Shown here one piece after another: positions 9,576 through 36,951 of a stretch of 64,000 bases of DNA. A program made the translations under genes and the position numbers. The number at the start of each line of letters is the position of its first letter. Positions within the stretch are counted from its first letter, which is position 1. The stretch lies in NCBI GenBank assembly GCA_003818205.1, contig RPRQ01000009.1:1-64000 (forward strand). Direction: 5' to 3'. The notes under the pieces are model-generated. The model searched no databases. It was given only the letters and a program-made list of their open reading frames with translations, and was not told the DNA's origin. This DNA comes from Bacteroidales bacterium. GTDB taxonomy: Bacteria > Bacteroidota > Bacteroidia > Bacteroidales > Tenuifilaceae.

Positions 9576-9890
9576 TTATGACTTTATCTCTATTCCAGTC
9601 CTTTTAATCTCAATAATAAACGGACTATTAGAATTAAAATCTTTTTTGGATATTGGGTGTGGTTCTATTCGTGAATCGATTTGAGATGCAAGTAACATTA
9701 GTTGAACTTGTAAATCAAACTTGTCACTATCATTTAGTTTATCAAAAATTAAAGCTATGTCAATATCACTATCCAGCCTCTCATTATTCTTGGCATACGA
9801 ACCAAAAAGAATAGCTCTTTTTATCCCTTTATGATTCTTTTTGATTAATGAAATATATTGGTTTATTGTAATATTAATTCCTTTATCCAT
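9576..9890 (-). CDS. MNT-type nucleotidyltransferase (HEPN-MNT pair 1)
   Basis: This 104-residue protein is a minimal nucleotidyltransferase. The fold signature GSYAKNNERLDSDIDI (residues 30-45) supplies the GS motif and the metal-binding D42 and D44. It overlaps the end of the upstream HEPN gene by 28 nt, the standard arrangement of HEPN-MNT modules. In characterised modules the MNT protein neutralises the HEPN partner, in some cases by adding AMP, so the antitoxin role here is inferred from family and context. A paralogue lies at 26188, sharing the IDSRIEPHP motif. Confidence 0.88.
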   Translation of the reverse strand: MDKGINITINQYISLIKKNHKGIKRAILFGSYAKNNERLDSDIDIALIFDKLNDSDKFDLQVQLMLLASQIDSRIEPHPISKKDFNSNSPFIIEIKRTGIEIKS

Positions 9891-10270
9891 AATCGTTGAG
9901 TTTTAAGTTCATAAATCCATTTCGTCGTGTATTCTAAAGTGCACTTCTTTTGAAAACTCAATTTATAGTCGTCATACCTTGCATTAATATTGAAAGCTGT
10001 AACTGTCACAAAAAATACTTTTTGTTCATCAGTCATTCCCATTTCAGCTAATTCGGCTAGCCTGAGTAGGTTGTGAATAAAAGGAGGAATGTCTTGTTTG
10101 GATTTCACGTAGTATGCTTTCAAAAGTTTCTCAATCATAAGATGCCCAACAAACAATGACCAGTTAAATCGTTTGGTTTCAAACATAGCCATCATTGTCT
10201 CAAAATCATCATCTGAGGTTTCAATCCAATATTTGATTACCTTTTCAATATCCATTTCTTTCTTCCCCAT
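9863..10270 (-). CDS. HEPN-domain protein (HEPN-MNT pair 1)
   Basis: This is an all-helical 135-residue HEPN protein with the family pattern GHLMIEKLLKAYYV followed by HNLLRLAELAE and NINARYDDYK. It is upstream of and overlaps the MNT gene, and is closely related to the protein at 26478. Many HEPN toxins are RNases using an RX4-6H motif. I cannot find that spacing here, so either this subfamily uses other residues or it is not an RNase. An alternative start is the ATG at 10255. Confidence 0.85.
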   Translation of the reverse strand: MGKKEMDIEKVIKYWIETSDDDFETMMAMFETKRFNWSLFVGHLMIEKLLKAYYVKSKQDIPPFIHNLLRLAELAEMGMTDEQKVFFVTVTAFNINARYDDYKLSFQKKCTLEYTTKWIYELKTQRLWIKELILQ

Positions 10271-25317: not shown

Positions 25318-26109
25318 ATGAAAATACTAAAAACACTCTTACTATCGGTTCTTGTTCTATCATCATCGATTCTTTTTGCTCAGGAGTTACCGAAGCCAAT
25401 GGATCCACCTCGTTTGGTTAACGATTTTGTTGGGTTGTTAGGTCAGGATGAGGTTTCAAGCCTTGAATCAAAATTACGTACCTATAACGATACTACCTCA
25501 ACTCAAATATATATTGTTATTGTTAACGATTTGCTTGGTTACGATAAATCTGATTACGCCTTTCGCCTTGCCGAACAATGGAAAATCGGGCAAAAAGACA
25601 AAAACAACGGAGCATTGATTCTTGTTAAACCTAAATCGGGCAGGGAGAAAGGCGAAGCCTTTATTGCAATCGGTTATGGTTTGGAGGATGTTATTCCCGA
25701 TATTACTGCCAATCATATTGTTGATCTCGAAATGATTCCATTCTTTAAGCAGAATCAATTCTACCAAGGTCTCGATGCAGCGACAAATACCATAATAAAC
25801 CTTGCTAAGGGTAAATTTACAGCCGAACAGTATGGTAAGCGCAAAAAATCATCAGGTGGTGGAAGTGCAATTATTATTATCATTATTGTTATTGTTCTTT
25901 CATTAATTTTTAGAGGGAACTCTAATAATCGAGGAAAAACGATGGGTGGTAGTAGTCTTCCATTCTGGTTGGCACTTGGAATGCTTTCGAGCGGTAGCCG
26001 AAGTGGAGGTTTCGGAGGATTTTCTTCAGGTTCAGGCGGGTTTGGCGGTGGCTTCGGCGGCGGTGGCGGCGGAAGTTTTGGCGGAGGAGGAGCTGGCGGA
26101 AGCTGGTAG
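25318..26109 (+). CDS. TPM-domain membrane protein with Gly-rich tail (YgcG-like)
   Basis: Signal peptide residues 1-21 (SSSILFAQ end) are followed by a TPM domain (RLVNDFVGLLGQDEVSSLE, TQIYIVIVND, KNNGALILVKP, AIGYGLEDVIPD), then a transmembrane run of isoleucine and valine near residues 183-200, and a tail of about 50 residues made almost only of Gly, Ser and Phe, ending AGGSW. The coding sequence of this tail and the following 55 bases are duplicated at 27003, on the far side of the HEPN-MNT pair. The tail codons differ between copies mostly at third positions. Confidence 0.9.
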   Translation: MKILKTLLLSVLVLSSSILFAQELPKPMDPPRLVNDFVGLLGQDEVSSLESKLRTYNDTTSTQIYIVIVNDLLGYDKSDYAFRLAEQWKIGQKDKNNGALILVKPKSGREKGEAFIAIGYGLEDVIPDITANHIVDLEMIPFFKQNQFYQGLDAATNTIINLAKGKFTAEQYGKRKKSSGGGSAIIIIIIVIVLSLIFRGNSNNRGKTMGGSSLPFWLALGMLSSGSRSGGFGGFSSGSGGFGGGFGGGGGGSFGGGGAGGSW

Positions 26110-26165
26110 TATAGGATGATCGAACACGAATGACGCTGATGATACGGATTTACACAGATACTTAA
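25995..26165 (+). repeat. Direct repeat, left copy (TPM gene tail)
   Basis: This stretch, from TAGCCGAAGTGGAGG to about 55 bases past the stop, is repeated at 27003-27170 with small differences and one 3-nt difference in the glycine run. The two copies enclose the second HEPN-MNT pair. Confidence 0.8.
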
Positions 26166-26187
26166 TTCGACAACATTCTCTCCACTT

Positions 26188-26499
26188 TTATGTAATACTT
26201 ATTTCTTGACCATATTTAAGTATTTCATAAACAATAGGATTTGAAAGTTCAAAATCTCTTTCCCTAAAAGGGTGGGGTTCAATCCGGCTATCAATTTGTC
26301 GCCTTAACCTCATCAATTCTAATTGTATGTCAATTAAATTATTATAATCTTTCAAAACAATTGCAATATCAATATCACTATCTTGATGGTAATTCCCTTT
26401 AGCATAGGAGCCAAAAAGAATTATTCTAATATCATTATAGTTTGCTTTTACAACACCTGCATACCTTTGAGCAATTTTTATAGCATCTGCTTTATCCAT
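26188..26499 (-). CDS. MNT-type nucleotidyltransferase (HEPN-MNT pair 2)
   Basis: The 103-residue protein has the same layout as the one at 9576: GSYAKGNYHQDSDIDIAI at residues 30-47 with metal ligands D42 and D44, and the shared IDSRIEPHP motif. It overlaps the HEPN gene by 22 nt. Its role as antitoxin is inferred from the family. It lies convergent to the TPM gene, between two copies of that gene's 3' end, so the pair appears to have arrived by insertion or recombination. Confidence 0.88.
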   Translation of the reverse strand: MDKADAIKIAQRYAGVVKANYNDIRIILFGSYAKGNYHQDSDIDIAIVLKDYNNLIDIQLELMRLRRQIDSRIEPHPFRERDFELSNPIVYEILKYGQEISIT

Positions 26500-26885
26500 A
26501 TTCTAATCACTGTAATTTTATCAATCCATTCTTTTGTAAAGTCTGCGGTACACAATTTATAAAATTCTCTTTTATAATCATCATATCTTGCATTAAGGTT
26601 AAAAGAGGTTATTTTATCGAGCCAATCTGAATTTTCGTCTGTCATCTTCATTTCACTAAGTTCTGCTAACCTGTAGAGATTGTGAAGAAAAGGAGCATGC
26701 TTCTTGTGCTTAGCCACATAAACAGCTTTGAGCAATTTTTCAACAGAAATATGACCCAAAAACAATGCCCATCCGTATGATTTTGAATCATATAAACTAA
26801 GCATTGTCTGAAAATCCTCATCAGAAGTTTCAATCCAATGTTTTACAACTTTATCTAGGTCAATATTTATGTTATTGTTACTCAT
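26478..26885 (-). CDS. HEPN-domain protein (HEPN-MNT pair 2)
   Basis: About 135 residues from the ATG at 26885 (MSNNNINIDLDKVVKHWIET). The frame is open to 26930, but the shorter start aligns with the paralogue at 9863. Shared blocks are HWIETSDEDFQTM, GHISVEKLLKAVYV, HNLYRLAELSEM and NLNARYDDYK. As in pair 1, no RX4-6H RNase motif is visible. The two pairs are related along their full length, so the genome holds at least two versions of the module. Confidence 0.85.
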   Translation of the reverse strand: MSNNNINIDLDKVVKHWIETSDEDFQTMLSLYDSKSYGWALFLGHISVEKLLKAVYVAKHKKHAPFLHNLYRLAELSEMKMTDENSDWLDKITSFNLNARYDDYKREFYKLCTADFTKEWIDKITVIRIWIKQML

Positions 26886-26950
26886 TTCATATTTTATGGT
26901 CAAATATACAATTAAATCATTGAATGACAATTGAACTGATTATTGCAATC

Positions 26951-26960
26951 CAACAACGTA
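26951..26960 (+). repeat. Cassette-boundary decamer, site 3
   Basis: CAACAACGTA differs by one base from the reverse complement of the decamer at 9549 and 10341. It lies just upstream of HEPN gene 2 and 43 bases before the duplicated TPM tail. Confidence 0.35.
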
Positions 26961-27002
26961 TTTTAGCATTCTGGTTAGTTTTATAATTGGTAACAAACTG
27001 TA

Positions 27003-27170
27003 TAGCCGAAGTGGAGGTTTCGGAGGATTTTCTTCAGGTTCAGGTGGATTCGGTGGAGGAGGCTTCGGCGGCGGTGGCGGCGGAAGTTTTGGCGGTGGCG
27101 GTGCTGGGGGAAGCTGGTAAGATAATCGAACACGAATGACACTGATGAATCAGATTTACACAGGTGCTTC
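27003..27170 (+). pseudogene. Duplicated 3' tail of the TPM gene
   Basis: A 39-codon fragment encoding the Gly/Ser/Phe tail (SRSGGFGGFSSGSGGFGG to GAGGSW, stop at 27118-27120) plus about 50 downstream bases, closely matching 25995-26165. It has no start and no TPM domain. The two copies form a direct repeat of about 170 bases around the HEPN-MNT pair, as expected if a duplication or a 3'-end-replacing integration placed the module here. Confidence 0.8.
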
Positions 27171-27199
27171 GAATTTATAAGTTTCAAATTCTATTCATT

Positions 27200-27396
27200 C
27201 TGAGAGGAAAAGCGTTGGCACAAGAACAGAAATAACAAAACCAAGATATTTCCCGCTTAAGGCCACTTGTAGAGCACGCCATTTGTGGAGTCAAACGTTG
27301 TCGTATTGCCAAAGATCGTTTACTTTGCCACAAACTGAGGCTCTATGACTTAATCATGGAACTCGCTTGTGGATTACCCAATCTCAGATTAACATT
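27200..27396 (+). pseudogene. IS transposase C-terminal remnant (DDE, IS5-like)
   Basis: One frame reads ALAQEQK, a TAA stop at 27233-27235, then RLRPLVEHAICGVKR, CRIAKDR and DLIMELACGLPNLR. This is the C-terminal signature of DDE_Tnp_4-type transposases (VEH.I.GVKR...ACGL.N.R), including the catalytic glutamate region. The N-terminal two thirds are missing and the 3' end is cut by the TIR at 27397. It is a dead fragment. Confidence 0.75.
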
Positions 27397-27619
27397 CAAT
27401 GTCGTTTACGTAAGAATTGTTATTTGATTATCAATACATTAATAATTAAATGGGGAATGATTTTTTGGCTTTTGCCACATGTTTTTAAGACTTTCTGGAA
27501 TAAAGCCCAAGTTAGTGGCTGACCACCACTCCCCAGCTTACCCTGCCGGCAGGTAGGCAGGGTAAGCTGGGGAGTGGTTATTAAGAGTTCCTATTTCCAT
27601 GCTTAAGTAAACGACATTG
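27397..27619. mobile_element. TIR-bounded element B (223 bp)
   Basis: The left end CAATGTCGTTTACGTAAG and right end CTTAAGTAAACGACATTG are 17/18 inverted repeats of the same family as elements A and C. No target duplication is visible, so it may have been rearranged. It abuts the transposase remnant on the left. Inside is a perfect 23-bp hairpin at 27525-27578. Confidence 0.6.
27525..27578. repeat. Perfect 23-bp inverted repeat
   Basis: The arms 27525-27547 and 27556-27578 are perfect reverse complements (beginning ACCACTCCCC and ending GGGGAGTGGT) with loop GGCAGGTA. Arm end and loop together contain CTGCCGGCAGGTAGGCAG, a motif that recurs at 46359 and, diverged, at 170. Confidence 0.75.
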
Positions 27620-27655
27620 AAATCAAATATATCAAATAGCATGATATATATTTGA

Positions 27656-27905
27656 TTATTTAGCTGCGCACCGTCCATAAAAAATGGACGGTGGAAAAAA
27701 ACTTCCACCATTACTTTCCAAATACTCTTTTTTGCTTAATGGCTGCATAATGCATATCAACCGGATATCATAGGGCTGCTCATAGTAGAATGATTTCTCG
27801 ATCTTGGAGTAAAGGATTGGTGTCTGTAGGATTTTAGCTCATCGATAAGTTCGTAAAGACGTGCTCGTTTTATTCAAAGTCTTACAGCAAAATCATCGGG
27901 TGTTT
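27656..27905 (-). pseudogene. Decayed HTH gene copy 1
   Basis: The minus strand reads TPDDFAVRL, a TGA where the intact gene at 30685 has GGA, then IKRARLYELIDELKSY, a frameshift, then SFYYEQPYDIRLICIMQP and ESNGGSFFPPSIFYGRC. It is thus a nonsense- and frameshift-bearing copy of the 113-residue HTH gene, missing about the first 23 codons. Confidence 0.85.
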
Positions 27906-27993
27906 TTGTTAGTTTTAAAGCGAGGACTGTAAGTTAGGAGGACTTGAAAACCGTGCCATTATACCAACATGTTTTTATTTCTTTGTTAAGAAT

Positions 27994-28025
27994 AAAACCC
28001 AGCCTACGGCTAGGTTTTTACTCTT
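27994..28025 (+). terminator. Terminator-like hairpin
   Basis: AAAACCcAGCC and GGCTaGGTTTT pair with one mismatch around a TAC loop, followed by TTACTCTTTT. On the minus strand it is followed by TTTTATTC, so it could also end the peptide transcript from 28105. Confidence 0.5.
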
Positions 28026-28104
28026 TTCGGCTGTTTAATACGATTACAACTATAGCATGTATTTGCAAAAATGCGCTAACTGGGAATAACCAAATCATTG
28101 AATA

Positions 28105-28257
28105 CTAGGCTGTACAACTACCTAAATAGTTACCTTCCTTTAAAAATTTCCAAGTTGAATGTGCAACATATCCAATGTAATACCAAAAAGCATCAGAGGC
28201 TTCTGAACCTCCATTAATTTCAACTTGTTCGCTAAATGTTAATTCCTTAAGCTCCAT
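28105..28257 (-). CDS. Double-glycine leader peptide P4
   Basis: The 50-residue peptide starts at the ATG at 28257 (MELKELTFSEQVEINGG): a 17-residue leader ending in GG, then a 33-residue core rich in aromatic residues (FWYYIGYVAHSTWKF) and ending GSCTA. Leader form plus the nearby C39 exporter indicate a processed, exported bacteriocin-like peptide. The frame extends upstream to 28296, but that part overlaps P3 and lacks leader features. It lies 23 nt after P3. Confidence 0.75.
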   Translation of the reverse strand: MELKELTFSEQVEINGGSEASDAFWYYIGYVAHSTWKFLKEGNYLGSCTA

Positions 28258-28280
28258 AATAAATAATTTTACATTTTTAA

Positions 28281-28472
28281 TCAAGCAGCATTCCATCCTG
28301 CCATAAAAGAATTATATGATGATACTGGATTACCAGCAGTCTCATATACTATGTAAAGACCTGCTGCTACAAGTGCAGCATACCAGACAAGACCACCATT
28401 AGTTTCGTGTAAATAAGTTGAATTCAATTCAACTAAATTCAGTCTTTTCAATTCAATTTCATTCATATTCAT
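28281..28472 (-). CDS. Double-glycine leader peptide P3
   Basis: A 63-residue peptide (or 61 from the second ATG, 28466). The leader ends YLHETNGG (residues 20-27), and the core is about 36 residues, hydrophobic in the first half (LVWYAALVAAGLYIVYE) and ending FMAGWNAA. The core resembles P1, both having an A/G-rich stretch with GLY. A C39 peptidase would cut after GG. It is probably cotranscribed with P4. Two different peptides side by side suggest a two-component bacteriocin, which is an inference. Confidence 0.75.
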   Translation of the reverse strand: MNMNEIELKRLNLVELNSTYLHETNGGLVWYAALVAAGLYIVYETAGNPVSSYNSFMAGWNAA

Positions 28473-28527
28473 AAAAGTATTAGTTACCCTAAATTTAAAG
28501 GGATTATGAATACCCTGCTTATAATAT

Positions 28528-28800
28528 TTATGTTTTCTTTTTATAGAGAAATAAGTTTATTATTAAAACGATTGATATAAAATCAATAAAATTTATAAAA
28601 TAGAAAGGAGACTTGCTTTCAAAACTATTCTTTAAAAATGAAAATAGTAAGTTTAGTATTACAACAATACTAAAAGTCACAAAAGTTACGATAATCGCTT
28701 TATATAAGCGTTCTGTTTTTTTTGACTTTATTGTGAAATATAATAATCCTATACAGACCAAATATTTTACAATAAAAATAACAATTTCATAAGTTGTCAT
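28528..28800 (-). CDS. Small membrane protein, possible immunity protein
   Basis: The 90-residue protein has three hydrophobic segments (about residues 4-22, 36-57 and 68-86) separated by short basic loops such as KSKKTERLYK. I do not recognise a family. Its position directly upstream of P3 and P4, its size and its topology fit a bacteriocin immunity protein, but that is inference from context only. Confidence 0.6.
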   Translation of the reverse strand: MTTYEIVIFIVKYLVCIGLLYFTIKSKKTERLYKAIIVTFVTFSIVVILNLLFSFLKNSFESKSPFYFINFIDFISIVLIINLFLYKKKT

Positions 28801-28839
28801 ATTGAAAATAATTAAATGTTAAACAAAACTAACTACTAT

Positions 28840-29112
28840 TTACAATGCTAAAGTAACTTCCCAGCGTCCAAAAAAGAACTGAAGTAAAAAACTTCCACCA
28901 TTGCATCCAACCTGCTCCTCATTACCCAATGGCTGCATTATGCAGTATAGCCTTATGTCGAATAAATGCTCATAATAGAATGTATTACTACACTTTGAGT
29001 ATTGTATTGGTGCCCCATGCGATTTAAGCTCATCAATAACCTCGTAAACTCGGGTAAGGCTAATGCCAAGCCTTGCTGCAAATTCATCGAGGACGAAAGT
29101 CTCAGTATGAAC
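28840..29112 (-). pseudogene. Decayed HTH gene copy 2
   Basis: The minus strand keeps one open frame reading DEFAARLGISLTRVYEVIDE, LKSHGAPIQYSKCSNTFYYE, HLFDIRLYCIMQP and CNGGSFLLQFFFGRW, clearly homologous to the intact gene at 30685. The first about 20 codons are lost, and stops lie upstream of VHTETFVLDEFAARL. It sits just upstream of the 28528 membrane protein in the same relation as the intact copy to P1. Confidence 0.85.
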
Positions 29113-29169
29113 GGGGATAAATTATTTTCAAGATTATAATTCTCTTAAAATTCAATAATAATCTTGATT

Positions 29170-29814
29170 TTACAACGAACCAATAGCTATTAAATTAATA
29201 ACTGAATGAACTAGAATTGAATAGATAATCCCAAAACTTAATCTTACATATCCCAAAAAAACACCCATTAAAAACTGTGGTAGTACTAAGAATGGTATCC
29301 ATAAATACAAAAAGCCTGATATGCCATCATAGTTTGTGAAATGCACAAAGCCAAAAAATATTGCTATTGCGTAGAAATAAATTGAATAATATTTTGTTGT
29401 CATGTTTCTAATCCCAATTTCTTTTGTTGAAAAGGTAACCGCTAGTATCGATAAAATGAGTAATATAACACTATAATAATAGTGTGCCTTTAACAAACTG
29501 TAAGCACTTAAAATGAGCGAGGTAAATGAAAAAATAATTAAGTTTCTTTTATTTATTACTAATAATATTCTGAAAAGTAATTCCTCTACGATAGGTGCTA
29601 TCACCACTGCCAACAATATTTTATGCAGTATATCAAAACTTAAATGTTTCTGGGAAATATTAAAAAAAGAATTCATTAATTTAATAAAGAAACCAATAGG
29701 TAACATTACTAAATAGAATGAAAATAGTATTATAAAAATATGTCGCCACTCTACCTTTTTCTGATCATTGTTTAAGGAAGGGCGTTTTAAAAATAAAAGA
29801 AAATATTCCATCAA
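29170..29814 (-). CDS. CPBP family intramembrane metalloprotease
   Basis: The 214-residue polytopic protein has the CAAX/CPBP motif EELLFR (E77, E78, R82) and a second motif FGFVHFTNY, with six or more hydrophobic segments. The family includes bacteriocin self-immunity proteins and intramembrane proteases with glutamate active sites. Location inside the GG-peptide locus suggests self-immunity or a processing role. The sequence does not decide between them. Confidence 0.85.
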   Translation of the reverse strand: MMEYFLLFLKRPSLNNDQKKVEWRHIFIILFSFYLVMLPIGFFIKLMNSFFNISQKHLSFDILHKILLAVVIAPIVEELLFRILLVINKRNLIIFSFTSLILSAYSLLKAHYYYSVILLILSILAVTFSTKEIGIRNMTTKYYSIYFYAIAIFFGFVHFTNYDGISGFLYLWIPFLVLPQFLMGVFLGYVRLSFGIIYSILVHSVINLIAIGSL

Positions 29815-29851
29815 TATAATCTAAAAATAAATTACAAAGAAGGTATCTCGA

Positions 29852-29898
29852 TTCGTAAAGGCGTACCCGCTTTATACCAATGTCTTAAATCAAAATCC
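29852..29898 (-). pseudogene. HTH gene fragment (copy 3)
   Basis: The minus strand contains ATAAAGCGGGTACGCCTTTA preceded by GATTTTG and AAGACATTGG, matching the recognition-helix region of the intact HTH gene (ATAAAGCGAGCACGCCTTTA) over about 47 bases with a few changes. Surrounding sequence no longer aligns. Confidence 0.6.
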
Positions 29899-30040
29899 CT
29901 TTCTCCCATTCTCAAACTCTACGCAAACCAAGCGGCATCAGATCTCTTTAGTAACCATTTCAAGATTTATCTCTTATCCAAAGACTATTGTCAACGATGT
30001 CCTTTTAGAACCTATATAACGAACAAATAAGTTAATCACA

Positions 30041-30190
30041 TTATTCTTTTATTTTCAAGTATAACTCCATTGAGAAATAGTATATACATAATGCTATTAG
30101 AATGTATTTTGGAATTTTTTCGTTTACTAGAAATAATGATACAATCATCACTAATATCATCGTAAATAAAACTGAAGTACGGCTTTTCAT
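30041..30190 (-). CDS. 49-residue membrane peptide, possible immunity protein
   Basis: This ORF is short. ATG at 30190 and TAA at 30041 frame 49 residues with two hydrophobic helices (VLFTMILVMIVSLFLV, and YILIALCIYYFSM) joined by NEKIPK, ending KIKE. It has no GG leader. Position right after the P1-P2 peptide genes and its topology suggest immunity. No family recognised. Confidence 0.5.
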   Translation of the reverse strand: MKSRTSVLFTMILVMIVSLFLVNEKIPKYILIALCIYYFSMELYLKIKE

Positions 30191-30230
30191 TATAAATGAT
30201 AAATATTGTTTTTCGTTTGTGTAATTAAAT

Positions 30231-30266
30231 AATGAGGCTGTCTAGGATTTTTTGGACAGCCTCATT
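30231..30266 (-). terminator. Hairpin after P2
   Basis: AATGAGGCTGTC and GACAGCCTCATT form a perfect 12-bp stem with a 12-base loop. On the minus strand it is followed by ATTTAATTA, 8 bases after the P2 stop. A plausible terminator, though the T run is weak. Confidence 0.6.
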
Positions 30267-30274
30267 ACTATCTA

Positions 30275-30406
30275 CTATTCATTATATCCAACCCAAATTC
30301 CAAGGGCTAAAGGAAAAGAAATAAATGGACTTAATGCAAATATCCATTCTTTCTTACCACCTGCTGTTTCTATCATTTCTGACTTCGTTAATTCTTGTAA
30401 TTCCAT
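30275..30406 (-). CDS. Double-glycine leader peptide P2
   Basis: A 43-residue ORF, below usual gene-calling size. The leader MELQELTKSEMIETAGG (17 residues) is near-identical in style to P4 (MELKELTFSEQVEINGG). The core KKEWIFALSPFISF then PLALGIWVGYNE is hydrophobic with a charged end. Such short GG peptides next to a C39 exporter are typical class II bacteriocin or pheromone precursors. It follows P1 by 47 nt on the same strand. Confidence 0.75.
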   Translation of the reverse strand: MELQELTKSEMIETAGGKKEWIFALSPFISFPLALGIWVGYNE

Positions 30407-30453
30407 AATTTCTATTTTTTCAACAGTTAATAATTAAAACATTTTTTTTAGAT

Positions 30454-30621
30454 TTACCAACCTAATTTCTTAAAAGTTCTACCTAAATCTTTTCCTAATG
30501 CATATAAACCAGCCTCAACGGCTACAAATAATGCACCTGCTTCGATCCAGATATTACCTCCATTTTTTTCTTTCTTCTCTTCAAAAGAAAGTTCAGTCAA
30601 ATTCATTCTTTCAAGTTCCAT
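30454..30621 (-). CDS. Double-glycine leader peptide P1
   Basis: A 55-residue ORF: ATG at 30621, leader MELERMNLTELSFEEKKEKN followed by GG, then a 33-residue core (NIWIEAGALFVAVEAGLYAL, then GKDLGRTFKKLGW). The core is an amphipathic-looking A/G-rich helix with a basic, tryptophan-ended tail, as in pore-forming bacteriocins. It shares A-rich/GLY character with P3. It lies 63 nt downstream of the HTH gene and belongs to the exporter locus. Confidence 0.8.
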   Translation of the reverse strand: MELERMNLTELSFEEKKEKNGGNIWIEAGALFVAVEAGLYALGKDLGRTFKKLGW

Positions 30622-30684
30622 AACAAATGTATTAAAACATTTTTAATCAAAGGCATACCCCCATTCTTTATACTGCCGAGGGCT

Positions 30685-31026
30685 TTAGCACTGTAACGTT
30701 ACAAATGCTAAAGTAGGGTAGTTGCGTCCATAAAAAATGGACGATGGAAAAAAATTTCCTCCATTACTTTCTATATACTCTTTTTTGTTCATTGGTTGCA
30801 TAATACATATCAACCTGATATCGTAGGGTTGCTCATAGTAGAATGATCTCTCACTCTTGGAGTACAGAATTGGTGCTCCATAGGATTTTAGTTCATCAAC
30901 AAGTTCGTAAAGGCGTGCTCGCTTTATTCCAAGTCTTACAGCAAAATCATCAGGAGAACCTGTTCTATGCTCGCTAATCAACTTGTGCATTAAGCTAATT
31001 CTGTCGATGTATTCAAAGATTTTCAT
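30685..31026 (-). CDS. Small HTH protein with C-terminal NGG tail
   Basis: A 113-residue protein with a DeoR/HTH_11-like helix-turn-helix (residues 24-50: DDFAVRLGIKRARLYELVDE), a beta section YSKSERSFYYEQPYDIRL, and a tail KKEYIESNGGNFFPSSIFYG. It is 16 nt downstream of the exporter gene and upstream of P1. Three decayed copies in this locus keep the same NGG tail. It is probably the local regulator. The double-glycine in the tail is unusual for a DNA-binding protein and could be a C39 site, which is speculation. Confidence 0.75.
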   Translation of the reverse strand: MKIFEYIDRISLMHKLISEHRTGSPDDFAVRLGIKRARLYELVDELKSYGAPILYSKSERSFYYEQPYDIRLICIMQPMNKKEYIESNGGNFFPSSIFYGRNYPTLAFVTLQC

Positions 31027-31042
31027 TCCCTTTTACTATTGG

Positions 31043-33196
31043 TTAAACAAATTGACTTTCTAATGTTTGGTGCTGCCACATTTTACAGAAGAGACCCTTG
31101 CTTGAGGTCAGCTCATTAAACGTTCCCTGCTCCGCCACTTCGCCATTATCAAGCACAACAATATGATCGGCAAGTGCTACCGTGGATAGCCTGTGGGCAA
31201 TTACGATAACCGTTTTCCCTTTCGCCCGCATCAGCTTAACCGTTCGTTGCACGTAACCCTCGGCAATGGAGTCGAGCGAGGAGGTTGCCTCATCGAGTAT
31301 TAGTATTTCGGGGTTACGGTAAAGCGCACGGGCAATGGCAATGCGCTGCCGTTGTCCCCCCGAAAGGGTTGTACCATGCTCGCCGATGTATGTATTGAAC
31401 CGATTGGGTAGGTGCTCGATAAATTCGGTCATCCCCAGCTGATTGCATATATCCATAATGCGCTCCATATCGGGGGTGAACTCACCTACCGCAATATTAT
31501 CGATGATATTACCAGCAAAAAGGTCAATATTCTGGGGGACAACTACTACCTTTTCACGTAGCGAAACGTTGGTGAAGTAGCGAATATCATAGCTACCAAG
31601 GTAAATATTACCATTTTGAATTGGGTAGATATTCTGTAAAATGGAGATTAGCGTAGTTTTTCCCGATCCGCTTTCGCCCACCACCGCTGTAACTTTCCCA
31701 GCCTGAATATTAAGATTTAAACTTTTAAATACCTCAACCCTTGTTCCATACCTAAAATCCACATTCTGAAAACGGATGTCGCCGATATGCTCCCCCTTTA
31801 GCTGAATCTTATTGGATTCATCCTCAATCTCCAGATCAAATATTTCGAACAGGCGGTCAGCTGCAATTTTAGCATCCTGATAGGTCTTGTTGAATCCGAT
31901 GATCCCCGATACAGGGCTTGTAAAGTAACCGATTACCGAGTAGAACGAGAGCAGCTCGCCAGGGGTTATTGTGCTCTCCAGCACAAAACCAGCACCAACC
32001 CAAAGTAGTACAATGGTTATTACCTGCGAGATTAACCCGGTTGAAGCCGATGAGAAAATGCCATTAACCCCCGATTTGTATATGATTTTAAGCAGCGATA
32101 CAAACCTTACCTCGGTTTTCAGGTTAGAGAAACCCTCCAGTCCAAATCGTTTAATGGTTGCCACAGCGTTAAGCGACTCAACCAGATGCGATTCCAGCTC
32201 TGCCGAGTTCTCCATTATCTTCCGCTGAACCTTTTTGTTCAGCCTATTTAGGATAAAATAGGTAATTGCGTAAAGCGGGATAACGATAAGCATTACCGCT
32301 GCAAGCTTCCAGTAAAAGGTGAACATAAGCACAAAGGATACCACCAGAATCATGATATTGACGATGAGATTTACGGTTACATCGTTTATGAAGAGTCGGA
32401 TTTTAACCGCATCGTTAATCCTCGATATAATCTCGCCCACCCTCATGCTATCGAAAAACGACTGGGGCAGCTTCAGCAGATGCTGATAGTAACCTAAAAT
32501 GAGGGTTGCGTCAATTCTTTGACCAACCTTTAAAACAAAGATTGATTGGAGCGTACTAAGTATAACCCTAATTAAGATTATAAAAAGCATTGCAACGCCA
32601 AGCAGGTTGAGCAGGTTAAGGTTTCCGCTTGGTATAACATAATCAACGATTTTGCCCACGTATATAGATGTGGTAAGCCCTAGAATGGAGAACAGAACTG
32701 CGCCGATTAGGGCTTGAACCAAAACCCCCTTATGAGGCTTTATTAGCTGCCAGAACCGAATAGAGACAGATACCTTTTCGGATTTTGGCTGAAAGCCATC
32801 ATTGGGTGCAATAAGGATAAGAACCCCTGTCCATGATTTTTTGAAATCTTCGTGTGGAATTTTATGATAATTGCCATCGGCAGGATCCATTACCTCTATG
32901 TAATCCTTTGTTGCTTTTATCAGAACTACAAAATGATGAAGTACCTCCTTTACAATAACATGTGCAATGGTCGGCATTGGGATTTTAAACAAACTCTCCC
33001 ATTCGCCTTTAACCCCCTTGGCATGGAAACCCATTTTCTGAGCGGCCTCAATCATCCCCAGAACATTTGTACCCTTTTTATCGGTACTGGCCATTTGCCT
33101 GATCTTCGCAATGGGTAGGTTCAGCTTATAGTGAGCGGCAACCGAAGCCAAACAGGCTGCCCCACAATCAGTAATATCGCGTTGTTTTATCTTCAC
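31043..33196 (-). CDS. C39-peptidase ABC exporter for GG peptides
   Basis: A bacteriocin-type ABC transporter (PCAT) of 717 residues. The N-terminal C39 peptidase has Q5, catalytic C11 (DITDCGAACLA), H88 (HHFVVLI) and D104 (VMDPADG). The membrane domain spans roughly residues 155-440 and the ATPase has GESGSGKTT, LSGGQRQR, ILILDEATSSLD and IAHRLST. All catalytic residues are present, so it should cut leaders after GG and export the core. It starts 3 nt after the HlyD gene stop and is followed by the HTH gene. Confidence 0.95.
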   Translation of the reverse strand: MKIKQRDITDCGAACLASVAAHYKLNLPIAKIRQMASTDKKGTNVLGMIEAAQKMGFHAKGVKGEWESLFKIPMPTIAHVIVKEVLHHFVVLIKATKDYIEVMDPADGNYHKIPHEDFKKSWTGVLILIAPNDGFQPKSEKVSVSIRFWQLIKPHKGVLVQALIGAVLFSILGLTTSIYVGKIVDYVIPSGNLNLLNLLGVAMLFIILIRVILSTLQSIFVLKVGQRIDATLILGYYQHLLKLPQSFFDSMRVGEIISRINDAVKIRLFINDVTVNLIVNIMILVVSFVLMFTFYWKLAAVMLIVIPLYAITYFILNRLNKKVQRKIMENSAELESHLVESLNAVATIKRFGLEGFSNLKTEVRFVSLLKIIYKSGVNGIFSSASTGLISQVITIVLLWVGAGFVLESTITPGELLSFYSVIGYFTSPVSGIIGFNKTYQDAKIAADRLFEIFDLEIEDESNKIQLKGEHIGDIRFQNVDFRYGTRVEVFKSLNLNIQAGKVTAVVGESGSGKTTLISILQNIYPIQNGNIYLGSYDIRYFTNVSLREKVVVVPQNIDLFAGNIIDNIAVGEFTPDMERIMDICNQLGMTEFIEHLPNRFNTYIGEHGTTLSGGQRQRIAIARALYRNPEILILDEATSSLDSIAEGYVQRTVKLMRAKGKTVIVIAHRLSTVALADHIVVLDNGEVAEQGTFNELTSSKGLFCKMWQHQTLESQFV

Positions 33197-33199
33197 AGT

Positions 33200-34387
33200 C
33201 TATTCCGTTCGTTGAGTTTTGGTATAGGGATTAAACCAATTATCGGCTTTATCAAAAAGAAGATTGTATAAGGATCGTTCCGTTACGATTATCCTTGAGG
33301 AAACGGTCATCCCCTTTTTAATATAACCCTTGTAGCCATTCTTTAGGGATAGGTAGTTACTTGAAAGTTTACATTTTACTCTAAAGTAAGCGTTATTACT
33401 ATTATCCATCAGTATATCGTCCGATACTTCCTCAATTTTTGCAGGTAGAAAGCCCCATTGGTTATAGCTATAGGCAGCAACCTGTAGCTTAACCTCTTGT
33501 TCAGCTTTAATATACCCAATATCCTCGGGTTTTACATAGCAAATTGCTATCAATTCGCAGTCGGGCGATAGCTCAGCAATATTCTGATTGGGATAAACAT
33601 TATTGCCAACCTGTAGCTCATTGCTCTGTTGTATTGTGCCTTTTAATGGGGAAATAATAAAATGTTTGGAAAGTTCTGCGTAAGAATTGTTTAGATTAGC
33701 CTCCACCTTCTGCATTTCTTCCTTTAGCCCTGTTAATCGGCTCTGCCAATCAGCTATTTGCTGGCTTAACAGCTGGTTATACTGCAGCTGCTCGTTATTT
33801 AGGTTGAATTGGCTCGACTCATAGTCAACCTTAGAAATAACCTTTTGCTTGTATAGTAACGTATTCCTGTCATGCTCAACCCTAAACCTCTCTATCCTTC
33901 TTTTTGATGTTATAAGCTGTCTTGAAAAATTATCAAGTTCAACTCTATACTTTGGGGTAGCCACACATCCCTTACAGCTATTATGTTTACCTAAATCTAG
34001 TTTTAAAAGTGTATCTAAATCCTCGATGAAGAGTAAATCCTCCTTCATCTTATACTCAAGAGATCTGATACTTGATTCTATTGGTAGGGTATCAAGTACT
34101 AGCAAAGTATCCCCAGCCAGCACTTTTGAATCGTTTCTAAGATTGGTATAGATTATCTTTCCGCTAAGGGAGGATATTATCGGTTGCTTTTCGATACTTG
34201 CCTGAATCAACCCCGATGTTTGAACCGTAACATCAACATAGATTATAGGTAGTATTGCTATGGCTGCTACAATTGCAACAATAATTATCCAAAGAATAGA
34301 TTTGCTTTTGGTTGAAATGTCATGCAGATACGACTCTATTGAACTTTGAATGACGAATGAGGGGTATATTTTATTTTCGGAAGACAT
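33200..34387 (-). CDS. HlyD-family periplasmic adaptor
   Basis: The 395-residue adaptor has one N-terminal transmembrane helix (IIVAIVAAIAILPIIYVDV, about residues 34-52), lipoyl half-motifs, a long coiled-coil hairpin (about residues 115-235) and a C-terminal beta region with GYKGYIKKGMTVSSRI. It links the C39 exporter to an outer-membrane channel. No TolC gene is in the window, so the channel must be supplied from elsewhere. It is the first gene of the minus-strand run; its promoter should be in the AT-rich spacer at 34388-34629. Confidence 0.92.
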   Translation of the reverse strand: MSSENKIYPSFVIQSSIESYLHDISTKSKSILWIIIVAIVAAIAILPIIYVDVTVQTSGLIQASIEKQPIISSLSGKIIYTNLRNDSKVLAGDTLLVLDTLPIESSIRSLEYKMKEDLLFIEDLDTLLKLDLGKHNSCKGCVATPKYRVELDNFSRQLITSKRRIERFRVEHDRNTLLYKQKVISKVDYESSQFNLNNEQLQYNQLLSQQIADWQSRLTGLKEEMQKVEANLNNSYAELSKHFIISPLKGTIQQSNELQVGNNVYPNQNIAELSPDCELIAICYVKPEDIGYIKAEQEVKLQVAAYSYNQWGFLPAKIEEVSDDILMDNSNNAYFRVKCKLSSNYLSLKNGYKGYIKKGMTVSSRIIVTERSLYNLLFDKADNWFNPYTKTQRTE

Positions 34388-34629
34388 TTAAGACAGCTAA
34401 TTATTGAGATTAGGTTTAAATACTATTTATTTATTTTTGAAATGCTATACGAAATTAAACATTATTTCGGAATTACCCCCCCCCGAATATATGTTATATA
34501 ACATACGAATGTATTGCGATAAAGATTCACCCCCCCCAAAACTAATAGCATTTTTTACATATATAATTGAATATTTTAATAATATCTATGTAATATTTGC
34601 TAATATTGTAATTCTGAAACTTCTAAGAA
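34388..34629. promoter_or_regulatory. Divergent AT-rich promoter region with C9 and C8 tracts
   Basis: This 242-base spacer separates the exporter operon from the AbiE pair. It contains a run of nine C (34476-34484), a perfect palindrome TATGTTATATAACATA (34490-34505) and a run of eight C (34530-34537). The palindrome is a candidate operator for AbiEi. Homopolymeric C tracts are otherwise absent from this AT-rich window. Confidence 0.55.
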
Positions 34630-35265
34630 ATGGACATTTTAGAGCAGTTAGGTATAGTACCTGTAGATTATTCAGTCCTTGAATCGCTGCTAGGGGGATA
34701 TAAATCACCAAGCAATAAGATAGCGAATCTCGAACGCGAGGGAAAGATCGTCAGGTTAAAAAAGGGCCTTTTCGTTATATCTCCAAATGTTTCGAGGCAT
34801 CTACTTTCAAACGAATTAATTGCCAATCATATTTATGGACCATCCTATATTTCGTTTGAAAGCGCACTAAGGTATTACGGTATTATCCCTGAACATGTAT
34901 TCACAATACGCTCAGTAACCCTTAAACGATCAAGAAACTTTTCAAATTCGATAGCAAATTACGAGTACACGGCAGCCACTTCAACGTACTATCCGATCGG
35001 GATTAGACAGGGGTTTATTGATAACAAGTACACTTTTTTAATTGCTTCGCCCGAAAAAGCAATTTGTGATATGTTAGCATTCACAAGCCGACTCCGCCTA
35101 CAATCATTAAAAGCCCTACATACCTACCTAGAGCATGATTTACGGCTAGATATGTCGTACATCAAAAATCTTGATGTCAACATAATTGAACAATGTGCAA
35201 TGGTTGGTAAAAAGAGAAAGAACCTCAATCTACTATATAAACTTGTAAAGTATGAATGCCTTTGA
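34630..35265 (+). CDS. AbiEi-type antitoxin/regulator
   Basis: A 211-residue protein with an N-terminal winged-helix (GGYKSPSNKIANLEREGKIV, RLKKGLFVISP) and a C-terminal domain with GPSYISFESALRYYGIIPE and ASPEKAICDML, both typical of AbiEi transcriptional regulators. In the type IV AbiE systems studied, AbiEi represses its own promoter and counters AbiEii. The last 14 nt overlap the start of the AbiEii gene, so they are translated together. An upstream palindrome may be its binding site. Confidence 0.88.
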   Translation: MDILEQLGIVPVDYSVLESLLGGYKSPSNKIANLEREGKIVRLKKGLFVISPNVSRHLLSNELIANHIYGPSYISFESALRYYGIIPEHVFTIRSVTLKRSRNFSNSIANYEYTAATSTYYPIGIRQGFIDNKYTFLIASPEKAICDMLAFTSRLRLQSLKALHTYLEHDLRLDMSYIKNLDVNIIEQCAMVGKKRKNLNLLYKLVKYECL

Positions 35266-36073
35266 TCAGATGCTCTCAAAATATGAGATAAAAACGCAAG
35301 ATCAATATAAAAATGCCCTACATGAGGTAATGCAGCAAATAGCCATTGCAGGGCTATATCGTGGTGGTTTTTTCGATAAAGCGGCATTTTATGGAGGTAC
35401 CTGTCTACGTATATTTCACTCATCGCAGCGATTCTCAGAAGATCTAGATTTTTCGTTACTCAACAATGAGATAAACTTCTCGTTAGAGAGTTACTTCAAA
35501 GCAATTATTATTGAATTTGAAGCATTAGGTAGAAAAGTTGAGGTTACGAAGAAAGAAAAAACAAATAATACCAAAGTTGAATCAGCCTTTCTTAAGGAGA
35601 ACACTGAATTTTACGATATTAAATTTACAACCGATAAAACCATTAAAATAAAAATTGAAGTTGACATCAATCCCCCTCCCGGATTTTCAACAGAACAAAG
35701 GTTGTTACTTCAACCATTCTCATTCATGACCCGCTGTTACACCTTACCGGATCTGTACGCAGGAAAGATGCATGCTTTGCTTTTTCGAAAATGGGGAAAC
35801 AGGGTAAAAGGTCGTGATTGGTTTGACTTTGAATGGTATATTAAAAGCAGCATAAGGTTAAACTTTGAACACTTTAACGAAAGAGTTAAGCAATTCAATG
35901 GCCGTGATATGTCAAAAAGCGATTTCATAAATGCGCTAAAAGAACGCCTTGCAAAAACTGATATCAATATGGTTAAGAAAGATGTGCTACCTTTTACTAA
36001 AAATCCAAAGGATTTAGATATTTGGTCGAATGACTATTTCCTAAAACTATCAGAACTATTAGTATATCAATAA
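35252..36073 (+). CDS. AbiEii-type nucleotidyltransferase toxin
   Basis: The 273-residue protein carries the AbiEii/DUF1814 nucleotidyltransferase signature FYGGTCLRIFHSSQRFSEDL followed by DF, with the acidic pair binding metal, then IKIEVDINPPPGF and LYAGKMHALLFRKWGNRVKG with RDWFDFEWYI, the conserved C-terminal blocks. All motif residues appear intact. AbiEii proteins inhibit growth through nucleotide transfer and can give phage abortive infection. Specific targets vary. It is followed by a strong shared terminator. Confidence 0.9.
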   Translation: MNAFDQMLSKYEIKTQDQYKNALHEVMQQIAIAGLYRGGFFDKAAFYGGTCLRIFHSSQRFSEDLDFSLLNNEINFSLESYFKAIIIEFEALGRKVEVTKKEKTNNTKVESAFLKENTEFYDIKFTTDKTIKIKIEVDINPPPGFSTEQRLLLQPFSFMTRCYTLPDLYAGKMHALLFRKWGNRVKGRDWFDFEWYIKSSIRLNFEHFNERVKQFNGRDMSKSDFINALKERLAKTDINMVKKDVLPFTKNPKDLDIWSNDYFLKLSELLVYQ

Positions 36074-36120
36074 ATAAAAAGTACTTCATCGCAAACTGAT
36101 GTAACGACTAAAACGCACGA

Positions 36121-36157
36121 ACGAAACGAGGTGGGTTTTTTGCCCACCTCGTTTCGT
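36121..36157. terminator. Strong bidirectional terminator
   Basis: ACGAAACGAGGTGGG and CCCACCTCGTTTCGT form a perfect 15-bp stem around TTTTTTG, between the convergent AbiEii gene and the zinc-ribbon gene. It is the longest simple terminator stem in the window. Confidence 0.75.
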
Positions 36158-36177
36158 ATTATGAATCTTGTTTCTGA

Positions 36178-36951
36178 TTACTCAACATTATCACCTGAAA
36201 AACCATCATCAACAAGGATACGTCCACAGTACTCGCAAACGATAATCTTCTTACGAATCTTGATGTCTAATTGGCGTTGTGGTGGGATTTTATTGAAGCA
36301 ACCTCCACAAGCATCACGTTTTACAGTAACAACGGCTAAGCCGTTACGGGCATTGGTTCTAATCCTTTTGTAAGCGGTATAAATACGTGGCTCAATCATC
36401 TCAGCATATGCCTCAGAACGACGATTCAGCTCATCCTCCTCCTTTTGGGTTTCAGAAATGATATCGTCCAATTCTGCTTTTTTATTCTTTAAATCAATGG
36501 AACGCTCATCAAGCAAAGCTTTTGCTTGTTCAATGGTTTGTTTCTTTTCCTTTGCCTGCTGAGTGAACTCACGAATTCTCTTCTCGCAAAGCTCTATTTC
36601 GAGCTTCTGATACTCTAGCTCTTTAGAGAGTGAATCGAATTCACGGTTATTACGGACATTGCTCTGCTGCTCTTCGTATTTCTTAATATGGTTTTCAGCA
36701 TCTTTAATCTCCTGCTTCTTACGAACGGCAATGCCTTCAATCTCTTCAACCTCTTTGTGAAGATTTGCAATTCGGGTTTCTAGCCCTTCAATCTCATCCT
36801 CTAAATCCTGCACCTCTAGTGGAAGTTCACCACGTAGTGTTTTTATATCATCAACTTTAGAATCAATGGTTTGAAGTTCATAAAGAATTTTCAACTTCTC
36901 CTCAACGGATAGTTCGGTGGTCTCAACGTGCTTGTTCTTATCTGCTGCCAT
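36178..36951 (-). CDS. Coiled-coil protein with C4 zinc ribbon
   Basis: A 257-residue protein with long coiled-coil (about residues 35-190) and a C-terminal C4 zinc ribbon (ACGGCFNKIPPQ and CEYCGRIL), the PF02591 type. It starts 7 nt downstream of the Nif3-like gene. This pairing is conserved in Bacteroidota but the cellular role is not established. Proposed functions in the literature (nucleic-acid binding, secretion chaperone in chlamydiae) cannot be tested from sequence. Confidence 0.88.
   Translation of the reverse strand: MAADKNKHVETTELSVEEKLKILYELQTIDSKVDDIKTLRGELPLEVQDLEDEIEGLETRIANLHKEVEEIEGIAVRKKQEIKDAENHIKKYEEQQSNVRNNREFDSLSKELEYQKLEIELCEKRIREFTQQAKEKKQTIEQAKALLDERSIDLKNKKAELDDIISETQKEEDELNRRSEAYAEMIEPRIYTAYKRIRTNARNGLAVVTVKRDACGGCFNKIPPQRQLDIKIRKKIIVCEYCGRILVDDGFSGDNVE

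What the first reader, a model, noticed from the sequence alone, without database searches (positions are those of the whole stretch)
25995..27170. HEPN-MNT pair trapped between two copies of a gene's 3' tail
About 170 bases covering the Gly-rich 3' end of the TPM gene and its downstream sequence occur on both sides of the second HEPN-MNT pair. The left copy belongs to the intact gene. The right copy is a tail fragment with the same start point (TAGCCGAAG) and several third-position differences. It looks like either an integration that supplies a replacement 3' end, or a duplication used as the landing site. No integrase is seen.
Basis: seen in the sequence. Interest (0 to 1): 0.6.

Follow-up and report, generated by a model that had tools for sequence, protein, structure and literature searches.

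The report
Toxin-antitoxin pair between duplicated gene ends
A small toxin-antitoxin gene pair sits between two copies of a host gene's 3' end; the same sandwich, built from unrelated target sequences, recurs around this gene family in related bacteria, which suggests that these pairs move by ordinary recombination with a piece of host DNA carried along rather than with an enzyme of their own.

Summary
A 169/167-bp stretch (38-39 codons including the stop, plus about 50 bp past it, of the TPM-domain gene) lies on both sides of the intact HEPN-MNT pair at 86% identity. All 10 substitutions in the coding part are synonymous (about 5e-6 if random). So both copies were recently the end of a working TPM gene, probably in two related lineages; this is not a decaying in-place duplication.

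Two same-genus genomes have one tail and no insert. A third has two tails around different cargo. The tail copy is one step in a 10-kb island (HEPN-MNT, bacteriocin export, AbiE) that those two genomes lack.

The pattern is general. Another HEPN-MNT pair in this genome lies between two copies of an ABC-F gene's 3' end, with empty sites in three relatives. Long direct repeats bracket 6/19 HEPN loci in the genus and 12/69 in the order, against about 1% of control positions. Inserts have no shared ends, inverted repeats or integrase.

Best reading: donor DNA (gene end plus TA pair) joined by one homologous crossover and one non-homologous junction, simplest as a circularised fragment. This resembles 'insertion with long target duplication', known for restriction-modification genes. 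Mechanism is inferred; excision and transfer are untested.

The parts
25318..26109 (+). TPM-domain gene, intact; host gene whose 3' end is duplicated
   Evidence: PF04536 E 1.6e-34; orthologues in 43 of 60 relatives
25995..26163 (+). left copy of the repeat: last 38 codons including TAG, plus 54 bp past the stop
26164..27002 (.). insert proper, 839 bp, 30% GC against 38% for the window; ends are not inverted repeats
26188..26499 (-). MNT nucleotidyltransferase (MntA-like antitoxin), GSX10DXD motif intact
   Evidence: PF01909 E 7.9e-13; NCBIfam MntA E 2.9e-11 but under its cut-off; PDB Mnt 5yep E 4e-5
26478..26891 (-). HEPN-domain protein (putative RNase toxin), overlapping MNT by 22 bp
   Evidence: PF05168 E 1.1e-15; 82% identical orthologue elsewhere in G003
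27003..27169 (+). right copy of the repeat: orphan TPM tail (39 codons including TAA) plus 49 bp past the stop
26110..36177 (.). whole island between the TPM gene and the zinc-ribbon gene, which are neighbours in G002 and G004

Best explanation
A DNA fragment from a related strain, carrying the end of its own TPM gene followed by a HEPN-MNT pair, entered this lineage. It recombined once, homologously, inside the TPM tail, most likely in the 42-bp identical block. Its other end was joined non-homologously to the start of a tail copy (27002/27003). The simplest route is end-joining of the fragment into a circle, then single-crossover (Campbell-type) integration at the TPM 3' end. The gene stays intact with a hybrid 3' end, the second tail is left behind, and the pair lies between direct repeats through which it could later pop out or amplify. 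Shown: the anatomy, empty sites, coding-type divergence, absence of ends and enzyme, and recurrence. Inferred: the donor, the circle, the order of events, and any excision.
For: 10/10 synonymous differences between the tails, and codon-position bias (7/1/17) between the two copies of a Wzz-like gene's 5' end around another HEPN-MNT pair in L249: in both cases the copies look like alleles from different lineages. Single-tail sites in G002 and G004. An independent case in the same genome: 128-bp ABC-F 3' tail on both sides of a HEPN-MNT pair, single tail in G002, G003 and G004, and in G004 the flanking gene directly adjacent. Recurrence: 6/19 HEPN loci in the genus and 12/69 in the order against 6/1668 and 17/1340 control positions; Fisher 2e-6 to 2e-5 and 1e-5 to 5e-4 on non-overlapping controls. 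Inserts (745-1774 bp; most about 0.8-1.2 kb) hold little beyond the pair and share no ends. Homology between the window pair and its 82% orthologue stops at the gene ends. In E. coli, linear DNA with one-sided homology gave mostly single-crossover products with 109-950 bp duplications (PMC3240628).
Against: No donor allele (TPM followed directly by HEPN-MNT, without the second tail) and no circular form were found. The empty sites lack the whole 10-kb island, so the exact pre-insertion allele is not seen. Polarity of the two tails is ambiguous. In the ABC-F case the copies are nearly identical and only the orphan looks derived, which an in-place duplication explains equally well. Most HEPN loci have no such repeats, including the other pair in this window. 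The genomes used for the counts are assemblies, mostly fragmented.
Confidence: 0.58

Rival explanations
1. In-place long target-site duplication: insertion into a long staggered break (or a replication-coupled process) copies 100-450 bp of the target, giving two identical copies that later drift.
For: ABC-F copies are nearly identical over the core and only the orphan has protein-changing differences; repeat length is variable, as in the restriction-modification precedent (PMC3874152).
Against: The TPM orphan tail has only synonymous differences, and L249 shows codon-type divergence, not expected of a dead copy.
Confidence: 0.2
2. Site-specific integration at gene ends by a recombinase acting in trans or since lost; the tails are attL and attR.
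For: The start of the repeat is a long identical core (42 bp) and the gene 3' end is regenerated, as in integrative islands.
Against: No integrase in the island; other HEPN-MNT pairs use unrelated targets, including a gene 5' end and intergenic DNA, with unrelated insert ends.
Confidence: 0.1
3. Pre-existing tandem duplication of the tail, into which HEPN-MNT later landed.
For: G003 also has a second tail at this gene, 321 bp downstream, fused to a double-glycine leader peptide.
Against: The G003 second tail has different length, divergence and cargo, and adjoins the native terminator; other targets are duplicated around other pairs.
Confidence: 0.07
4. Assembly chimera of strain variants in a metagenome-derived contig.
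For: The genome is a 186-contig assembly with 2.6% contamination.
Against: Both junctions join unique sequence to a tail, so each must exist in some molecule; the same architecture recurs in many other genomes.
Confidence: 0.05

Closest known systems
Insertion with long target duplication, described for restriction-modification genes in Helicobacter pylori (Nobusato et al. 2000, as cited in PMC3031569, PMC1643837, PMC3874152)
   Same: Addiction-type gene pair bracketed by variable direct repeats of the order of 100 bp, empty allele with one copy in relatives, no transposase or inverted ends
   Different: Cargo is HEPN-MNT, not a restriction-modification system; in the TPM and L249 cases the two copies differ like alleles of separate lineages
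Single-crossover integration of circularised linear DNA with one-sided homology, and HFIR (Amarir-Bouhram et al. 2011, PMC3240628)
   Same: One homologous and one non-homologous junction, leaving a 109-950 bp duplication beside the insert
   Different: Laboratory conjugation in E. coli; here inferred from natural genomes
Orphan 3' ends and immunity genes in Vibrio T6SS and Rhs loci (PMC5361080)
   Same: New cargo enters behind a conserved gene part and older 3' material is shifted downstream
   Different: There the effector itself is replaced; here the TPM gene is kept and unrelated cargo enters
Mobile MNT-HEPN modules (Makarova et al. 2009, PMC2701414)
   Same: Same gene pair; presence/absence at syntenic sites between related genomes reported
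   Different: No flanking repeats or insertion mechanism found in that paper by term search

Membership tests
Insertion with long target duplication | Insert flanked by long, variable direct copies of target sequence | tested here: met
   169/167 bp here; 67-451 bp in 16 loci
Insertion with long target duplication | Related genome with one copy and no insert | tested here: met
   TPM: G002, G004, but they lack the whole island; ABC-F: G002-G004
Insertion with long target duplication | No transposase, integrase or terminal inverted repeats | tested here: met
Insertion with long target duplication | Cargo is a restriction-modification system, as in the described cases | tested here: not met
   Cargo is HEPN-MNT; so it works like this process, with another kind of cargo
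Integrase-borne island in a gene 3' end | Integrase gene in the element | tested here: not met
Integrase-borne island in a gene 3' end | Common attachment core in independent insertions | tested here: not met
   Targets and insert ends unrelated between loci
MNT-HEPN (type VII) toxin-antitoxin pair | Adjacent HEPN and minimal nucleotidyltransferase genes | tested here: met
   22-bp overlap
MNT-HEPN (type VII) toxin-antitoxin pair | Toxin neutralised by MNT adenylylation | not testable with these tools
   needs expression assays; MntA equivalog model matched under its cut-off
Insertion sequence or composite transposon | Transposase with terminal inverted repeats or short target duplication | tested here: not met

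The most novel reading that the evidence does not exclude
HEPN-MNT pairs (and other tiny orphan genes such as GxxExxY) in Bacteroidales are a class of integrase-free mobile units. They travel as fragments or circles with a piece of host gene and insert by the host's own recombination, the toxin-antitoxin addiction supplying the selection that fixes them.
Probability: 0.25. Interest if true: 0.75.

Novelty: new variant of a known kind. Interest (0 to 1): 0.52.

Why it matters
How small toxin-antitoxin pairs move between genomes without transposases is an open question; MNT-HEPN was called highly mobile in 2009 without a stated mechanism. A measurable footprint, long direct copies of target DNA with allele-like divergence, makes the route testable and ties these pairs to the long-target-duplication process known for restriction-modification genes.

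Tried and rejected
First fetch by contig number was wasted on short contigs. Considered and set aside: the 52-bp GAACACGAATGAC... sequence as a genome-wide repeat (only the two copies exist); HEPN-MNT with conserved mobile ends (homology stops at gene ends; no common ends). Two of the six bracketed HEPN loci in the genus are probably other things: C45 repeats are two group II intron 3' ends, and C106 is a three-copy repeat array around several small toxin genes; without them the count is 4/19. The other HEPN-MNT pair of the window (9576-10270) has no repeats. ParE loci: 2/27 bracketed; GxxExxY: 9/26, so the pattern is not exclusive to HEPN-MNT. No structure prediction was run, as fold was not in question. 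The original long-target-duplication papers were not available (Furuta 2010 not held; Nobusato 2000 not among the search results) and are cited through later ones.

Full report
What is there. The TPM-domain gene (25318-26109, plus strand; PF04536) ends in a Gly-rich tail. The last 38 codons including the stop and 54 bp beyond it (25995-26163) occur again at 27003-27169. Between them, in 839 bp of AT-rich sequence (30% GC; window 38%), lie an intact MNT gene (26188-26499, minus) and an intact HEPN gene (26478-26891, minus). The right copy has no start codon in its open frame, which extends only 23 codons upstream (read). Neither copy occurs elsewhere in the genome.

The differences between the tails. 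The coding parts differ by 10 single substitutions and one Gly codon. All 10 are synonymous. With a transition bias of 4, a random substitution in this stretch is synonymous 30% of the time, so 10 of 10 has a chance of about 5e-6 (a rough calculation that treats sites as independent). The two copies therefore diverged while both were selected as protein-coding gene ends. A fragment left behind by a local duplication would not be. The first 42 bp are identical, a natural place for the crossover.

Relatives. In same-genus G002 and G004 the TPM gene is followed by a terminator and then the zinc-ribbon gene on the opposite strand, with one tail. In the window the same two genes (TPM; zinc ribbon 36178-36951) are 10 kb apart. 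The island holds HEPN-MNT, the tail copy, double-glycine-leader peptides, a CPBP protease, a peptidase-ABC exporter (TIGR01193), an HlyD protein and AbiEi/AbiEii. G003 has a second tail 321 bp from the first, as the C-terminus of a 61-aa peptide with a double-glycine leader, next to the native terminator. G001 is cut off by a contig end. So the TPM 3' end is a repeated insertion point, and in two genomes the tail is duplicated with different cargo.

The pattern is wider. In G000 contig C78 another HEPN-MNT pair lies between two copies of the last 128 bp of an ABC-F gene. G002, G003 and G004 have one tail, and in G004 the next gene stands directly behind it. Here the copies are nearly identical and the orphan has the protein-changing differences, so this event may be younger or in-place. 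G003 C1 and G000 C48 have intergenic repeats of 265 and 98 bp around the pair. Outside the family, L249 has the 5' end of a Wzz-like gene on both sides, with differences by codon position 7/1/17, again allele-like.

Counts. Repeats of at least 95 bp bracket 6 of 19 HEPN loci in the genus; two of these are a group II intron pair and a repeat array, leaving 4. With a fixed rule (at least 60 bp, 78% identity, within 1.5 kb on either side), 12 of 69 loci in the order are bracketed against 17 of 1340 control positions and, in G000, 6 of 1668. On non-overlapping control windows, Fisher values are 1e-5 to 5e-4 (order) and 2e-6 to 2e-5 (genus). The genus count used a stricter length rule than its control. 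Over 16 loci the median repeat is 147 bp and the median spacing 1.1 kb: the units are little more than the gene pair. The background scan itself picked up small mobile genes: a REP-associated transposase-like gene and a GxxExxY gene (names from sequence, not all tested). GxxExxY loci are bracketed in 9 of 26 and ParE in 2 of 27, so the footprint belongs to several, not all, tiny mobile genes.

How it most likely works. Insert ends are unrelated between loci and are not inverted repeats, targets are unrelated, and homology between the window pair and its 82% orthologue in G003 ends at the genes. This argues against a dedicated recombinase. One homologous and one non-homologous junction suffice. 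Amarir-Bouhram et al. report that in E. coli most of the selected recombinants from linear DNA with homology at one end carried duplications (56 of 60; 109-950 bp in 14 sequenced) and explain them by circularisation and single crossover (PMC3240628). Applied here: a fragment 'TPM end + HEPN-MNT' from a related strain closes into a circle and integrates at the resident tail. This explains the intact gene, the second tail, the synonymous differences and the variable repeat lengths. It is inferred; no circle or donor allele was found.

What is known. [quoted passage not shown] also PMC3031569, PMC1643837). MNT-HEPN mobility between syntenic sites was noted in 2009 (PMC2701414), without repeats. 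Term searches for HEPN-MNT with direct repeats found nothing on this in the held papers. I call it a new variant of a known kind: known footprint, new kind of cargo, with evidence that the two copies can come from different lineages. The library lacks most subscription papers, so prior description cannot be excluded.

Noticed in passing
L006 2274-2598 (G003): A 61-aa peptide with a double-glycine leader whose C-terminus is the TPM Gly-rich tail (GGGGGSFGGGGAGGTW), directly behind the TPM gene: either a second tail-duplicating insertion or a leader-tail gene fusion. No Pfam or NCBIfam match.
   Followed up: partly
window 27661-27900, 28854-29089, 30725-30954: Two degenerate copies of part of the HTH-like ORF 30685-31026 flank the double-glycine-leader peptide genes of the bacteriocin cluster (69-88% identity); the cluster may itself have grown by tail or head duplications.
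   Followed up: partly
window 27221-27621: Stretch resembling a transposase C-terminus (not confirmed by Pfam, 75% identical DNA elsewhere in the genome) followed by a 227-bp element with inverted ends TTCAATGTCGTTTAC whose parts recur at many places in the genome, directly behind the right tail.
   Followed up: partly
L172 1857-1995, 2639-2795, 4341-4480 (G000 contig C106): Three spaced copies of a 140-157 bp repeat separating small toxin gene pairs (ParE/RelE type, HEPN-MNT); looks like a cassette array, integron-like attC sites not tested.
   Followed up: no
L164 2880-3033 and 4284-4438 (G000 contig C45): A HEPN-MNT pair between the 3' ends of two group II introns (Rfam RF00029 both).
   Followed up: partly
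G000 contig C32 61499-62142: GxxExxY (PDDEXK_3) gene between 99-bp direct repeats; in the order 9 of 26 such loci are bracketed by repeats.
   Followed up: partly
L081 6011-6435 (G011): About 220-bp tandem duplication of the start of a metF-like gene, which is the gene next to a HEPN-MNT pair.
   Followed up: no
window 34630-36073: AbiEi/AbiEii pair as the last module of the 10-kb island before the zinc-ribbon gene; the island stacks defence and bacteriocin modules at one site.
   Followed up: partly
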